Virus record (IMG/VR): IMGVR_UViG_3300009155_000048
Coordinates: 1 to 64,000 of that record
Origin: a virus
DNA: 64,000 bases
Reading direction: 5' to 3' (one strand)
Numbering within the stretch: the stretch's first letter is position 1; each line of letters opens with the position of its first letter. The position numbers and the translations under genes were made by a program. This document shows positions 22,752 to 60,298 of this stretch, one piece after another. The notes below the pieces were generated by a model. The model saw only the letters and a program-made list of their open reading frames with translations, ran no database searches and was not told the origin of the DNA.

Positions 22752-24023
22752 TTATGATCCAACTTTGACATCTATCCGTTTAATTGCTACTTGTAACCAA
22801 TCCGGTATTAAATGTGAACTATACTTTAAGATATCAGAAAAGGATCCATCTATAATAATCGTATCTGCGAAATCGGTTTTGCTCCTTACTGAACGACCAG
22901 TCATTTGTAGTAAACCACAAACAGTTTTCCAGGCATACCACTCTGGATTATTTTTCTGTCGCATTTTGTTTTTTTGTGAACCGAGGCTAGGATACGGAAT
23001 TTTAGCTATAATTTGAAATCTACTTCTATCATGGTCAAATGAAACTCCAGTTCCAACAGATGGACTAACAAAAACTGTTGGATCCTCTGTTTCAAAATGT
23101 TTTCTCAACATTTCATCTTTATTACTGGATTCATGAAACACTAATCTTGGATTGTCAACGCCTCTTTGGATCCAATTTGATAACTCAAAAGAATTGGTGT
23201 GAATGATTCCTTTTTTACCTTCATACTTTTTCAACAACTTATGTAAATAAGTAACATAATTCTTAAATGTTTCTTCTTTTTTAGCATAAGACATTTTACC
23301 CAATGGCATATAATATATTGGTCTGTTTTCAACCGGAAACGGTGATGGTACAGAATAGTAAACTGTTTTATCTTCATCTAATCCATTTAATTCTGAAAAT
23401 AATCTTTTATCTAAAATAGTACCAGACATTAAGATAACCATATCATACTTACTCCAAACATACTTATCTAAGTAGTCATAAGCCCAAATTGGTTCTAATG
23501 ATAATTCTTTTTGATCTGTTTTTTCATTGAAATAAGTTTCAAGTACCCAATTGTGTGGATTTTCTTTATATTCTTTTAAGAAAAGGTCAATTTTTAATTG
23601 ATATTGTTTTAAGTCACTTATAACTTGCATCAACTTAACATCGCTATTTCCACCAACACCAGTTATCTTAGATATTCTTAAATCTCTTTTATCTTGTTTA
23701 ATATTTCTACCACCTTGCATAGACTTATCAACATCATCAATGGTTTGAATAACCTCACCTTTAAGATACTCTAAGAAAGTAATATACTGAGTAATAGTTC
23801 CAACTTTTTTAAGTTTCTTTAAGATATCATCCTCATTAGTAAACTTCAATTTCTTAACAGTAGTTTCTGTTATTTTAATAGAAACAAAATCACTCATTAC
23901 ATCATCAAATTCGTGGCAATTACTAACACAATGATTACTTGCAAAATAATTGTGATTGTCTTTTATATGTAAATTATAAACATCTTCTTTATAATCTATT
24001 TTTTTAATACTTTTAATTTTCAT
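22752..24023 (-). CDS. DinG/XPD-like helicase, C-terminal part preceded by split-intein C half
   Basis: 423 residues. The first 35 residues are an intein C-terminal half: VYNLHIKDNHNYFAS (block F) and HCVSN before Cys36 (block G; the usual penultimate His is Ser). From Cys36 the host protein resumes CHEFDDVMSDF, completing the D-E-C-H box begun in the gene at 24861. Further motifs are ILMSGTILDKR, GIIHTNSFELSNW, VSPSVGTGVSFDHDRSRFQI and the motif VI QMTGRSVRSKTD. It is a superfamily 2 helicase that needs trans-splicing with the N part to be complete. Its ATG overlaps the stop of the nuclease gene (ATGA). Confidence 0.9.
   Translation of the reverse strand: MKIKSIKKIDYKEDVYNLHIKDNHNYFASNHCVSNCHEFDDVMSDFVSIKITETTVKKLKFTNEDDILKKLKKVGTITQYITFLEYLKGEVIQTIDDVDKSMQGGRNIKQDKRDLRISKITGVGGNSDVKLMQVISDLKQYQLKIDLFLKEYKENPHNWVLETYFNEKTDQKELSLEPIWAYDYLDKYVWSKYDMVILMSGTILDKRLFSELNGLDEDKTVYYSVPSPFPVENRPIYYMPLGKMSYAKKEETFKNYVTYLHKLLKKYEGKKGIIHTNSFELSNWIQRGVDNPRLVFHESSNKDEMLRKHFETEDPTVFVSPSVGTGVSFDHDRSRFQIIAKIPYPSLGSQKNKMRQKNNPEWYAWKTVCGLLQMTGRSVRSKTDFADTIIIDGSFSDILKYSSHLIPDWLQVAIKRIDVKVGS
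23919..24023 (-). other. split-intein C-terminal half (Int-C)
   Basis: 35 codons from the ATG to the Asn before Cys36. Its length and block F/G order match natural split inteins of the gp41-1 kind. Ser replaces the usual penultimate His. Confidence 0.8.
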
Positions 24024-24889
24024 TTCTCAAACTGTTTTAAATTTTTAACTATCTTATCTTCACTTGGTTGCCCTTTTACTATACTTTCATTATAGTTTCT
24101 GATAAACCACTTATCTGTTATTATTACAAATTTATAGTCTTTTAGATTACACCACTTTTTAGCATATCTAATTTTAGTTCTAACTTTATGGTCATCAATA
24201 TTTGATAGAGGTTTTATCTCATATAAAATCTTATTTTCAGTATCAACAAAATCAACTATATAATTATGTTGTACTCCTTTGTATTTGTATGGAATAACAA
24301 CTTTCTCATAAATCAAATCAACATTAAATAATTGAAAATAAGCTTCCCAGGTGGATCTAGTTTTAGTTTTGATAAATTCATTTCCTCTGTAAAATTCTAT
24401 TTCACATCTCGATTTAGCCCAACTATTAGTAACATTAGGTATAAATTTACCATCTCTTATATTGGCCTTCATCTTAACTGAATTTTTATTACACATAGAT
24501 TTAAAAGTTTCACTACTCATCCTATGACTTGTATTATTTTCACCAAGTTGTCTATCCGAAATTGATTTATAATTACACTTAGGATCATCACAGAACTTAT
24601 AAATTCCATATTTTTTTCTAATTAAATTAAAATCTTCTCTATTTGGGAACAAACTTGTAATTTTTCTTTTATTTGGACAATTTTTACTTTTACACTTCTT
24701 ATCCCAATGTTCTGTTAAAAATTCAAAACAAGTTTTAATTTCATCAAATTTTAATTTATAACCTAATTCTAAAAATATCATATTTAATGATGATATCTTA
24801 TCCCTTTCCAATTTCTTATAAATAAATCTGTCTTTAATACTTGAGATATAATCATATATTTTATTCTTCTCCTCTATTGTCAAATTCAT
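24020..24889 (-). CDS. PD-(D/E)XK-type homing endonuclease inside a fractured gene
   Basis: 289 residues between the two halves of the split helicase, in a different frame. Features are a zinc-knuckle-like CKSKNCPNKRK and C...C pair in the first third, a central basic region, and a C-terminal nuclease core HNYIVDFVDTENKILYEIKP (D ... E-x-K), then AKKWCNLKDYKFVIITD. This is the PD-(D/E)XK/Vsr-like pattern found in endonucleases of 'fractured' intein genes (Dassa and colleagues, 2009). It would cut intein-less alleles and copy the whole cassette. Its start overlaps the N half by 29 bases and its stop overlaps the C half by 4. Confidence 0.8.
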   Translation of the reverse strand: MNLTIEEKNKIYDYISSIKDRFIYKKLERDKISSLNMIFLELGYKLKFDEIKTCFEFLTEHWDKKCKSKNCPNKRKITSLFPNREDFNLIRKKYGIYKFCDDPKCNYKSISDRQLGENNTSHRMSSETFKSMCNKNSVKMKANIRDGKFIPNVTNSWAKSRCEIEFYRGNEFIKTKTRSTWEAYFQLFNVDLIYEKVVIPYKYKGVQHNYIVDFVDTENKILYEIKPLSNIDDHKVRTKIRYAKKWCNLKDYKFVIITDKWFIRNYNESIVKGQPSEDKIVKNLKQFEK

Positions 24890-25196
24890 GGGATTCTATT
24901 TTTTCATTTATATATAAAATCTCATCTTCTTCATTCAAATCTTCTACTTTTTTCCAATCACCATTTAATAACTTTACTTTGTGATTACCTGTTATTTTTA
25001 AATTGTCACCATTTTCCATTTCAATCTCATACATCTGTTTGCCTTTATTTAGGTTCCTATGCAATTTAACAACTGGCTTTATTTCTATATCACCACTGTC
25101 CTCATTTATAGTTTTAACTAAATCACCAATCTCTATATCTTTTATCTTTTTAAAACTTCCATCAGATAAAGTTATTTCAGTATCAGGATGAAGACA
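24861..25196 (-). other. split-intein N-terminal half (Int-N)
   Basis: 111 codons plus stop from Cys168 of the helicase fragment. CLHPDTEITLSDG is a standard intein block A; the insertion falls exactly inside the D-E-x-H box. Confidence 0.85.
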
Positions 25197-25697
25197 CTCA
25201 TCTACAATTAAAACATTAGCCTTTCTTTGATCCATAACTCCATTATTATAAAGAGCATATATTAAATATAAGTAAAAATTAGTTAAACTAACTCTACCAC
25301 CAATGTATCCACCTTTGGCATCATCATACGGACAAAAATCACAACTGGTTTTATTTAGTCTATTAAACTCTTTACCATTTGCACAAGAACAAGCGTATTG
25401 AGCACACTCATAATTTTCTTTACCTTTTAGATTATTGATGGATTCATATGTATCATCATATTGGTCTTGTAGAATTTTACCAGCAGTTATAATATCAACT
25501 TTTGATCCAACATCAATTTTTGAGGTATACCAATCAGATATCATCATAGCTAAGTGACTTTTACCACTACCGACCGGCATATTTAATAGGAAAAACTTAG
25601 TATCTGGTTTATCACTCTTAGTCTTTATAATGAAGTCAAGTGCGTCTGTTTGTTCTTGACGTGGTGTATATTTGATTAAATCTTTCTTAATTGACAT
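24861..25697 (-). CDS. DinG/XPD-like helicase, N-terminal part with split-intein N half
   Basis: 278 residues. Residues 1-167 are helicase: a Q-motif-like PRQEQTDAL, Walker A NMPVGSGKSHLA (about 39-50), and four cysteines in CAQYACSC ... CDFCPYDD that match an iron-sulphur cluster of the XPD/DinG family. The host part ends LIVDE. From Cys168 an intein N half begins CLHPDTEITLSDGSFKKIKD and runs 111 residues with the block B-like GNHKVKL. The protein stops without a nuclease domain, so splicing must occur in trans with the product of 22752-24023. Together they give a helicase of about 555 residues. Confidence 0.9.
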   Translation of the reverse strand: MSIKKDLIKYTPRQEQTDALDFIIKTKSDKPDTKFFLLNMPVGSGKSHLAMMISDWYTSKIDVGSKVDIITAGKILQDQYDDTYESINNLKGKENYECAQYACSCANGKEFNRLNKTSCDFCPYDDAKGGYIGGRVSLTNFYLYLIYALYNNGVMDQRKANVLIVDECLHPDTEITLSDGSFKKIKDIEIGDLVKTINEDSGDIEIKPVVKLHRNLNKGKQMYEIEMENGDNLKITGNHKVKLLNGDWKKVEDLNEEDEILYINEKIESHEFDNRGEE

Positions 25698-26415: not shown

Positions 26416-27906
26416 TTATAACTCAGCTTCTAACATTTTAATTTCATCTAAAACTTTTTTTAGTTCATCTTTTTTAGACATCATTATTTTTTTATTTTTC
26501 TTTCTATCCGCATAAACATCTTCCAACATTTTAATTGTAGGTGAGTTTCTTTTTTCAAAAACAACTCCATTTACACAAACAACATGGTTACTGTTTATTT
26601 TAACCCCATTATCACAATACTCTTTATTATTTGGATTTTGTATTCCTATAAAATTTTCAGGAGCGATATAGAACTGTCTCTGAGTAGTTGGATAAAGTGA
26701 TGCAAAATCATAGGTTACACACCACTGATTCATACCAGTTACCGGATCCTTTACCCAACCACCAGCAATACCAACATTTTCACCAGGCTCTTTATCACCT
26801 CTAAATAAAACTATATTTTCTTGTTCACGAAATCTATTTCTGAGAACACCCTCTGTAATAGCTAAAGAACCAAGTGCATTATTCATCTGTGAGATAACAT
26901 CCACAATCTTTATTTGCGCAAGTGATGAAATCGCATAAATAATTGAGATATAGTTTCTGGATTCATGTATCTTTTGTACTAACACGGAGTCAACCGCGTT
27001 ATAGTACATAAATGTTTCAAAGTCATCCTCATACAATCTTTGTAGTGAACCTGTATATTTAATCTTTTCAACCCCAACTAACTTACTAGACACGAAATCC
27101 AATGAAGATGATTCTTTTACTTTAATTGATGTGTCACAGATTTCATACAACTGCATATAGTCAAAAATCATTCTATGTGCTGGCATTTCTTCATTTGACA
27201 TCCAAACCTTATTTAATCTTTTTGTTAAAGAAGCAACTGCTGGATTAATATCATACTCTCTACCATTAACATATTTTTTAAGCTTTCTAGCACGATTCAC
27301 TAAATAAACCCAGTCATAGTTAATAAAGTTCCAACCAGTGATGAGTGGCATTTTTGGAATCATCTTATAAAAGAAAGCATACATCATATCAAATTCATCT
27401 TCATATTTGATATATTTTAGTTTATAATTAGAACCAAACTTAGCAAAGTACTTATTAGTATTATCTTTAATACGCTGTTGCATATCTTCTGGCATATCTT
27501 TTAATCCAAGTAGAATGATTTTATCATCATATACAATTGAAATAGATAGAACTTTTGTGGGAGCTGTCTCAGCATCAGGAAAACCATCAACAATCTCAGT
27601 CTCAATATCGACAAAGTAGATATTTGGAAGATTATACTCAAATATCTCTTCTTTTTCCTTTTCTGGAAGAGAATCTAAGAACTCATAGATAGCATATCTA
27701 TCTGGAGTATTCACTTCCTCGTGTTTAACATTCTTACCATCCCAAGATTTGAATGTTGGATGACGGTCTTTATCATCATCATCACAAACAATATATTTTT
27801 TGGGATTCTCCCATTCGTAATATTTTAGTTTTATATCGCCGGTTTTATCAACATAACTTACTACTAATCGCTTACTATTATTTAAATATTGTGTATCTAC
27901 TAACAT
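26416..27906 (-). CDS. family B DNA polymerase, N-terminal half (exonuclease plus motif A)
   Basis: 496 residues versus about 900 in T4 gp43. Exonuclease motifs are present: FVDIETEIVDG (Exo I), ITGWNFINYDWVYL (Exo II) and MYYNAVDSVLVQ (Exo III). Polymerase motif A, VTYDFASLYPTTQRQF, lies near residue 410. The protein then ends in a helix, YADRKKNKKIMMSKKDEL, with no motif B (K-x-x-x-N-S-x-Y-G) or motif C (D-T-D). No second half is in this window. Split gp43 genes are known from some T4-like phages with a break close to this point. The ending is a clean stop, so a two-subunit polymerase is the best reading. Confidence 0.92.
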   Translation of the reverse strand: MLVDTQYLNNSKRLVVSYVDKTGDIKLKYYEWENPKKYIVCDDDDKDRHPTFKSWDGKNVKHEEVNTPDRYAIYEFLDSLPEKEKEEIFEYNLPNIYFVDIETEIVDGFPDAETAPTKVLSISIVYDDKIILLGLKDMPEDMQQRIKDNTNKYFAKFGSNYKLKYIKYEDEFDMMYAFFYKMIPKMPLITGWNFINYDWVYLVNRARKLKKYVNGREYDINPAVASLTKRLNKVWMSNEEMPAHRMIFDYMQLYEICDTSIKVKESSSLDFVSSKLVGVEKIKYTGSLQRLYEDDFETFMYYNAVDSVLVQKIHESRNYISIIYAISSLAQIKIVDVISQMNNALGSLAITEGVLRNRFREQENIVLFRGDKEPGENVGIAGGWVKDPVTGMNQWCVTYDFASLYPTTQRQFYIAPENFIGIQNPNNKEYCDNGVKINSNHVVCVNGVVFEKRNSPTIKMLEDVYADRKKNKKIMMSKKDELKKVLDEIKMLEAEL

Positions 27907-59788: not shown

Positions 59789-60298
59789 ATGTTAAATAGT
59801 GCTCCAAAACAACCAGGTAAATATCACCAAGGATTGTTTACTCCAAGTAACAAAGACAAAGTAATTAAATTAAACTCACAAGGTGGATTATACTATCGTT
59901 CCGGATTAGAACAGAAAATGATGGTCTATCTAGACAATAATGAAAAGATTATCAATTGGGGATCAGAACATCTTAGAATACCCTACACTAAAACAGAATG
60001 GGTATCAGAAAATCAAGATTATAAAACATCAGAACATACTTACTATCCTGACTTTTATTATGAGTTAAAAAGAGAGGATGGATCAATTTCTAAAGTTGTT
60101 GCTGAAGTAAAGCCTTATTCAGAAACAATTGAACCTAAATTGAATCCAAATCCAACAGCTAAACAGATGAAGAACTTTGAATATGCTCTTAAAATGTATA
60201 ATAAAAATCTAAGTAAGTGGACTTACATGATTGAATATTGTCAAAGAAAAGGATTTGAATTTATTATTATTACTGAAAAAGTCCTTGGATCAAGATAA
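59789..60298 (+). CDS. head completion nuclease (gp4-like)
   Basis: 169 residues, close to T4 gp4 (gp50). GLYYRSGLEQKMMVYLDNNE then WGSEHLRIPYTK, YYPDFYYELKR and VVAEVKPYSE give the PD-(D/E)XK nuclease core (E ... P-D ... E-x-K). T4 gp4 is needed to finish DNA-filled heads. The C-terminal helix has AKQMKNFEYALKMYNKN. It is encoded divergently from the head-region gene at 59052 and overlaps the membrane-protein gene by 29 bases at the 3' end. Confidence 0.88.
   Translation: MLNSAPKQPGKYHQGLFTPSNKDKVIKLNSQGGLYYRSGLEQKMMVYLDNNEKIINWGSEHLRIPYTKTEWVSENQDYKTSEHTYYPDFYYELKREDGSISKVVAEVKPYSETIEPKLNPNPTAKQMKNFEYALKMYNKNLSKWTYMIEYCQRKGFEFIIITEKVLGSR

What the first reader, a model, noticed from the sequence alone, without database searches (positions are those of the whole stretch)
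22752..25697. Fractured helicase gene: split intein in the D-E-x-H box with a PD-(D/E)XK nuclease gene between the halves
The N half ends LIVDE then intein block A (CLHPDTEITL). The C half opens with a 35-residue Int-C (HCVSN) then CHEF. A free nuclease gene with EIKP core lies between, overlapping both. This matches the rare 'fractured gene' arrangement described by Dassa and colleagues (2009), here in an iron-sulphur DinG/XPD-like helicase. The penultimate Ser instead of His is unusual and may affect splicing.
Basis: partly seen in the sequence, partly recalled or inferred. Interest (0 to 1): 0.75.

Follow-up and report, generated by a model that had tools for sequence, protein, structure and literature searches.

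The report
Walker-B split intein with homing nuclease
A huge-phage DNA helicase gene is cut in two at its ATPase active-site motif by a mobile element, made of two half-inteins that should re-join the protein and a nuclease gene that probably spreads the element; the same arrangement sits at the same motif in at least six kinds of phage ATPase.

Summary
Two helicase halves (167 + 388 residues) are separated by a 1,278-bp insert placed between the Glu and Cys codons of motif II (LIVDE|CHEF). The insert holds IntN (111 aa), a 289-aa nuclease gene and IntC (35 aa). The fractured-gene reading is strongly supported. A sibling phage, 94% identical over 10 kb of flanks, has the same helicase intact at the empty site. 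Ten occupied alleles are scattered among 64 empty ones, so the element moves. In one allele the nuclease has decayed while both intein halves and helicase halves stay intact. Two corrections. The penultimate Ser is normal here (6/6 DinG/XPD-like, 23/29 UvsW copies). The nuclease is TnsA-like PD-(D/E)XK, closer in fold to TnsA than to the Vsr/EDxHD homing nucleases recalled for the founding fractured genes. The case is also not isolated: of 60 distinct nuclease loci, 52 show both intein flanks, and all 54 scored 5' junctions are DE|C of Walker B, in DinG/XPD-like and UvsW-like helicases, clamp loaders, TerL, PhoH and a CobS-like ATPase. Trans-splicing and homing remain inferred. New variant of a known kind.

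The parts
25197..25697 (-). N-extein: helicase N part (167 aa) with Walker A (VGSGKS), four Fe-S cysteines, ending at motif II ...VLIVDE
   Evidence: ResIII 1e-7; PHROG DNA helicase 2e-22; the four Cys are invariant in intact homologues
24861..25196 (-). IntN: 111-aa N-terminal intein fragment (Cys1 CLHPDTEITL, B block ITGNHKV) plus stop
   Evidence: Hint 8e-12, Intein_splicing 2.8e-9; family HMM 2e-40; C1 and B-block His 39/39 in the family
24020..24889 (-). nuclease gene, 289 aa, TnsA-like PD-(D/E)XK (RSTWE, D213, E224-I-K226), presumed homing endonuclease; overlaps IntN ORF by 29 nt and IntC ORF by 4 nt
   Evidence: PF08722 7e-7; PHROG endonuclease 1e-26; AF2 pLDDT 89.8, best credible Foldseek match TnsA prob 1.00
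23919..24023 (-). IntC: 35-aa C-terminal intein fragment, own ATG, ...NHNYFASNHCVSN
   Evidence: Intein_splicing profile positions 122-152, 3e-5; family HMM 2e-21; terminal Asn 39/39
22752..23918 (-). C-extein: helicase C part (388 aa) starting CHEFDD, with Helicase_C_2 and motif VI (QMTGRSVRS)
   Evidence: Helicase_C_2 2.7e-13; PHROG DNA helicase 4e-65; 98% identical to intact L097
23919..25196 (-). whole mobile insert, 1,278 bp, absent from the sibling L097; GC 24.4% against about 30% in both exteins

Best explanation
This is a mobile fractured-gene element: a naturally split class 1-type intein whose two halves are fused to the two halves of a phage DinG/XPD-like Fe-S helicase at motif II (Walker B, LIVDE|CHEF), with a free TnsA-like PD-(D/E)XK homing endonuclease gene between them. 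Proposed working: the three overlapping genes are transcribed and translated together as separate proteins. IntN and IntC find each other, fold into one Hint domain and splice in trans, restoring an uninterrupted 555-residue helicase (LIVDECHEF). The nuclease cuts intein-free alleles of the same gene at or near the motif II codons in co-infecting phages, and repair from the occupied copy inserts the element, sometimes with a little flanking DNA. Removal would need a precise deletion inside an active-site motif, so the element persists. Shown: anatomy, homologies, conserved catalytic residues, empty-site alleles, scattered distribution, signs of purifying selection on all parts, and one copy with a decayed nuclease but intact intein. 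Inferred: splicing, DNA cutting and homing.
For: Anatomy and domains. Exact empty site: sibling L097, flanks 94.1% over 4.5 kb and 94.7% over 5.7 kb, helicase uninterrupted, difference exactly 1,278 bp. Two further close occupied/empty pairs: L130/L149 (96.5-96.8% beside the site) and L021/L098 (96.4%, same metagenome accession). Occupied alleles scattered: 9 occupied tips need 9 changes on the helicase tree, shuffled mean 8.6. C1, B-block His, terminal Asn and +1 Cys are each 39/39 in typical copies. IntN, IntC and nuclease diverge with dN/dS of about 0.10-0.38, 0.01-0.15 and 0.11-0.43 where computable. L132 retains both intein halves and both helicase halves while the nuclease is reduced to frameshifted remnants. 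The same nuclease family is flanked by IntN and IntC in 52 of 60 distinct loci, 5' junction DE|C in 54 of 54 scored. Insert GC 24.4% against 30%. No group I/II intron by Rfam.
Against: No splicing or cleavage experiment exists. Two accessory residues depart from the class 1 norm: block F Asn in place of Asp, and block G penultimate Ser in place of His. Synonymous sites are near saturation in most pairs, so dN/dS values are rough, and extein divergence partly accrued while alleles were empty. The record is a 107-kb fragment, so another helicase elsewhere in the genome cannot be excluded. The sibling's +1 residue is Ala, so insertion there would have needed co-conversion or a later change to Cys.
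Confidence: 0.9

Rival explanations
1. Genes in pieces without splicing: the halves assemble non-covalently into a working two-subunit helicase and the intein remnants are inert tails.
For: Split enzymes that work without ligation are known in T4-like phages (NrdA of Aeh1, from general knowledge; reference listed in PMC3322345). Penultimate His and block F Asp are missing.
Against: The nucleophiles and catalytic His/Asn are invariant across 39 diverged copies, and IntC is the most conserved part of the insert (82-97% identity, dN/dS about 0.01-0.15). L132 keeps both intein halves intact after the nuclease has decayed. The break falls inside motif II.
Confidence: 0.05
2. The locus is a dying gene: the nuclease insertion destroyed the helicase and the parts are drifting.
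For: An interrupted essential-looking gene; Campylobacter phage CP21 shows a similar cassette with broken frames.
Against: All helicase motifs are intact. Against its sibling the window differs by 5 non-synonymous changes in 473 codons outside the junction, with 70 changed codons in all. Ten distinct occupied alleles all keep their intein-helicase frames open.
Confidence: 0.02
3. RNA-level rescue: a group I or II intron, or programmed frameshifts, joins the halves.
For: Nuclease genes often sit in phage introns, and the ORFs overlap.
Against: No Rfam intron match. The insert ends are intein protein motifs and not intron cores. Overlap lengths and relative frames vary between loci.
Confidence: 0.02
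4. The nuclease is not a homing enzyme but a phage function (repair or packaging) lodged in the intein.
For: TnsA-like domains also occur in gp4-like head-closure proteins, one of which is in this window.
Against: The family is almost always nested between intein halves, its presence varies between siblings, and it decays without loss of the intein (L132).
Confidence: 0.05

Closest known systems
Fractured genes of Dassa et al. 2009 (NAR 37:2560; not held in the library; content from general knowledge and citing papers)
   Same: Phage enzyme gene broken by a split intein with a free endonuclease gene between the halves.
   Different: Dassa et al. described a Vsr-related endonuclease family in about half of 26 loci (recalled). 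Here the nuclease is TnsA-like; TnsA matches at Foldseek prob 1.00, I-Bth0305I at 0.69 and Vsr at 0.38. I could not check whether any of their loci hold this family or this host gene.
AceL NrdHF split intein (PMC7891396)
   Same: Fractured gene in a phage-like contig, 98-aa IntN and 48-aa IntC.
   Different: Class 3 intein and GIY-YIG nuclease in nrdHF.
MIJ3 PolB split intein (PMC6892783)
   Same: Jumbo-phage replication gene split by an intein with a nuclease ORF between the halves.
   Different: HNH nuclease; IntC block G ends VHN.
TerL split inteins of T4-like phages (AceL-TerL and GOS-TerL type, recalled)
   Same: TerL loci found here carry the same nuclease family at the same DE|C point.
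   Different: The TerL copies are split close to the N end (IntN about 32-41 aa, IntC about 105-115 aa); the window intein is split at the usual endonuclease site (111 + 35).
Campylobacter phage PhoH inteins (IBB_35, PMC3322345; CP20 and CPt10 here)
   Same: PhoH reported interrupted by inteins in 2012. Here the CP20 PhoH gene is shown split at VDE|C with the same nuclease family.
   Different: Different host gene; penultimate Lys.
TnsA of Tn7 and gp4-like head-closure proteins
   Same: Shared PD-(D/E)XK TnsA-like domain.
   Different: Those act in transposition and head completion; no intein context.

Membership tests
Split intein (Hint superfamily, class 1 type) | IntN with Cys/Ser/Thr1 and B-block T-x-x-H | tested here: met
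   C1 and T-G-N-H present; C1 and His 39/39 in the family; Pfam Hint 8e-12
Split intein (Hint superfamily, class 1 type) | IntC with F and G blocks, terminal Asn and +1 Cys/Ser/Thr | tested here: met
   HCVSN|C; terminal Asn 39/39 and +1 Cys 39/39
Split intein (Hint superfamily, class 1 type) | Block F Asp and penultimate His (usual, not universal) | tested here: not met
   Asn in place of Asp (Asn 38/39 in family); Ser in place of His (6/6 DinG and 23/29 UvsW copies). Usual but not required features.
Split intein (Hint superfamily, class 1 type) | Ligates exteins in trans | not testable with these tools
   needs expression
Fractured gene | One enzyme gene broken by a split intein with a free endonuclease gene between the halves | tested here: met
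Fractured gene | Nuclease of the Vsr-related (EDxHD) family seen in about half of the founding loci (recalled) | tested here: not met
   TnsA closest by fold; I-Bth0305I and Vsr much weaker; Pfam TnsA-like. Not a requirement for membership.
Homing endonuclease element | Present and absent in otherwise near-identical alleles | tested here: met
   WIN/L097, L130/L149, L021/L098
Homing endonuclease element | Cuts the uninterrupted target site | not testable with these tools
   needs a cleavage assay
XPD/DinG-like Fe-S helicase | SF2 motifs, four Fe-S Cys between motifs I and II, Helicase_C_2 domain | tested here: met
   Helicase_C_2; DEAD_2 in homologue L004; Cys 98/105/119/122 (L002 numbering) invariant in intact homologues

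The most novel reading that the evidence does not exclude
A family of TnsA-like nucleases has specialised on the codons of the Walker B 'DE' in unrelated phage P-loop ATPases, has been captured by at least two differently split inteins at that point (usual split in helicases, clamp loaders and PhoH; near-N-terminal split in TerL), and has occasionally jumped between gene families. The motif would then act as a common docking site that drives the origin of split inteins.
Probability: 0.45. Interest if true: 0.75.

Novelty: new variant of a known kind. Interest (0 to 1): 0.62.

Why it matters
Fractured genes have mostly been described as single cases. Here one nuclease family can be followed through occupied alleles, near-identical empty alleles, one allele with a decayed nuclease, and six host-gene families, nearly always at one active-site motif. 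This makes the homing cycle of a split intein directly testable, including how a nuclease enters and leaves an intein and why split inteins form. It also supplies dozens of new natural split inteins, many without the penultimate His, for protein-ligation work, and it explains short 'helicase' or 'terminase' fragments in phage annotation.

Tried and rejected
Sequence search of the nuclease profile against the PDB found nothing; fold search was needed. Rfam found no intron. The apparent IntC match in LR745206 (from query residue 15) and a similar one in LR756501 were spurious extensions: both genes are intact. The founding paper (Dassa 2009) is not held, so its locus table could not be compared. 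Loci without both intein flanks were read one by one: most are contig ends or recoded, and only L095 has a clearly different site. The idea that penultimate Ser marks a defective copy was rejected.

Full report
WHAT IS THERE. The window lies in a 107,134-base virus record. Its T4-like major capsid and portal genes and closest relatives among 635-642 kb metagenomic phages mark it as a fragment of a huge phage. On the minus strand three ORFs overlap: 24861-25697 (278 aa), 24020-24889 (289 aa) and 22752-24023 (423 aa). The first is a helicase N part followed by an intein N fragment (Hint 8e-12, Intein_splicing 2.8e-9). The last is an intein C fragment followed by a helicase C part (Helicase_C_2 2.7e-13). 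The middle one carries a TnsA-like endonuclease domain (PF08722, 7e-7). The overlaps are 29 nt and 4 nt. Cutting out 23919-25196 (1,278 bp) joins GAG (Glu) to TGC (Cys) and gives one 555-codon helicase reading ...VLIVDE-CHEFDD.... The host gene is DinG/XPD-like: homologues match DEAD_2 and Helicase_C_2, and four cysteines between motifs I and II are invariant in intact homologues.

EMPTY SITES. LR756502 and LR745206 carry the same gene uninterrupted in the same neighbourhood (LIVDESHEF, LIVDEAHDF). A scan of viral contigs with the helicase profile returned 79 loci, most of them intact. The decisive one is L097: 94.1% identical over 4.5 kb on one side and 94.7% over 5.7 kb on the other, helicase intact, and missing exactly the 1,278 bp. 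Two more close pairs exist: L130 (occupied) with L149 (empty), 96.5-96.8% beside the site, and L021 (occupied) with L098 (empty), 96.4%, from the same metagenome accession. On a tree of 82 C-exteins, nine occupied alleles need nine changes; shuffled labels give 8.6 on average. Occupancy therefore follows no clade, as expected of a mobile element. The tree cannot by itself tell gain from loss.

TRACES OF THE PROCESS. Around the joint, the window and L097 differ at 8 of 12 codons (-9 to +2), four of them non-synonymous, against 5 non-synonymous changes in the other 473 codons (Fisher p = 3e-5 for this chosen window; p = 0.004 when every 12-codon window is allowed). This fits a short co-conversion tract brought in with the element, although independent change near the site is possible. 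Among 64 distinct empty alleles the +1 residue is Ala in 41, Cys in 12 and Ser in 11; all occupied alleles have Cys. L132 has complete IntN, IntC and both helicase halves, but the nuclease is reduced to short frameshifted remnants. The nuclease can thus be lost while the intein is kept, which is expected if the intein must splice to make helicase. Between the window and other occupied alleles, rough dN/dS is 0.10-0.38 for IntN, 0.01-0.15 for IntC (where computable) and 0.11-0.43 for the nuclease; synonymous sites are near saturation, so these are indications only. The insert is poorer in GC (24.4%) than both exteins (about 30%).

CATALYTIC RESIDUES. Over 39 typical copies from distinct nuclease clusters, Cys1, the B-block His, the terminal Asn and the +1 Cys are each 39/39. 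Block F has Asn where Asp is usual (38/39). The penultimate residue is Ser in 6/6 DinG-type and 23/29 UvsW-type copies, His in all clamp-loader and CobS-like and most TerL copies, and Lys in PhoH.

THE NUCLEASE. AlphaFold2 with a 35-row alignment gives pLDDT 89.8 and pTM 0.68. The best credible Foldseek matches are TnsA of Tn7 (probability 1.00, E 7e-3, weak in absolute terms); I-Bth0305I, the EDxHD homing nuclease, follows at 0.69 and Vsr at 0.38. The invariant D213, E224 and K226 and the RSxWE motif fit a PD-(D/E)XK active site. Other nuclease types reported between halves of a fractured gene are the Vsr-related type (Dassa 2009, recalled), GIY-YIG (PMC7891396) and HNH (PMC6892783). I could not read Dassa 2009, so I cannot exclude that some of its unassigned loci belong here.

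A FAMILY AT WALKER B. Searching phage records with the nuclease alone gave 48 records. Those inspected have it inside broken genes: TerL (SG1, SEA1, Thanatos-2, phiS), UvsW (PM2, STP4-a), PhoH (CP20, CP21), a UvsW-like helicase of Lak phage (read with TAG as Gln) and a clamp loader (LR756500). A profile scan of viral contigs gave 80 more loci. Together these form 60 clusters at 95% nuclease identity. Of these, 52 have an intein N junction upstream and an intein C junction downstream, and all 54 N junctions scored read DE|C. For the 39 typical copies the boundary was set by the intein profile alone; for the TerL copies the DE|C pattern was part of the search and was checked by eye. PHROG matches on 20 representative C halves name the hosts: DinG/XPD-like helicase, UvsW-like helicase, clamp loader, TerL, PhoH and a CobS-like AAA+ ATPase. 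The exceptions are contig ends, recoded phages and L095, which has another TerL site. In the nuclease tree the host genes cluster (12 changes, shuffled mean 27.8), with DinG-type copies lying in two places among UvsW-type ones; deep forks are weak. This suggests homing mostly within one gene with occasional jumps. TerL copies are split near the N end, so the nuclease probably entered at least two intein backbones at the same protein motif. This is inference.

VERDICT. The observation and its interpretation hold (confidence 0.9 for the mechanism class). Splicing and cutting are inferred. The kind is known; the nuclease type, the host gene, the Walker B rule and the occupied/empty/decayed series make it a new variant.

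Noticed in passing
window 26416-27906 (-): DNA polymerase B gene is only an N-terminal half (ends after motif A). The same short form is in L002 and L003, and no C half matches elsewhere in the 107-kb record. No intein motif is seen at its end.
   Followed up: partly
window 59789-60298 (+): TnsA-like head-closure protein (gp4-like, PF08722 6e-15) near the portal gene; the homing nuclease and this virion protein share a domain family.
   Followed up: partly
L132 2461-4792: Occupied helicase allele in which the nuclease is a frameshifted remnant while both intein halves and both helicase halves are intact.
   Followed up: yes
L095 133-5844 (and L096): TerL appears to be in three pieces, with a LAGLIDADG-like domain in the first ORF, a second nuclease of another family (DUF7487, PHROG homing endonuclease) and a TnsA-like nuclease at a different site (AFIE|C ... 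SHN|T).
   Followed up: partly
L068 2776-6313: TerL in three pieces: Walker B split with nuclease, then a second split (AAQE|C) with no nuclease between.
   Followed up: partly
L032 2827-3981 (same contig as L164): DinG-like helicase also carries an intein C end at the P-loop (SNHN|SGKS), so Walker A and Walker B are both interrupted.
   Followed up: no
L010 467-2212 and L011 1642-3393: TerL N part, short IntN and nuclease are fused in one frame, so splicing would release the nuclease joined to IntN.
   Followed up: no
L015 (Campylobacter phage CP21) 918-3780: PhoH cassette with broken frames in IntN, nuclease and C half, unlike the open frames in CP20: decay or sequencing errors.
   Followed up: no
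L006 2513-5810 (Lak phage): UvsW-like helicase of a TAG-recoded Lak phage is fractured at IIDE|C; the frames are open only when TAG is read as Gln.
   Followed up: partly
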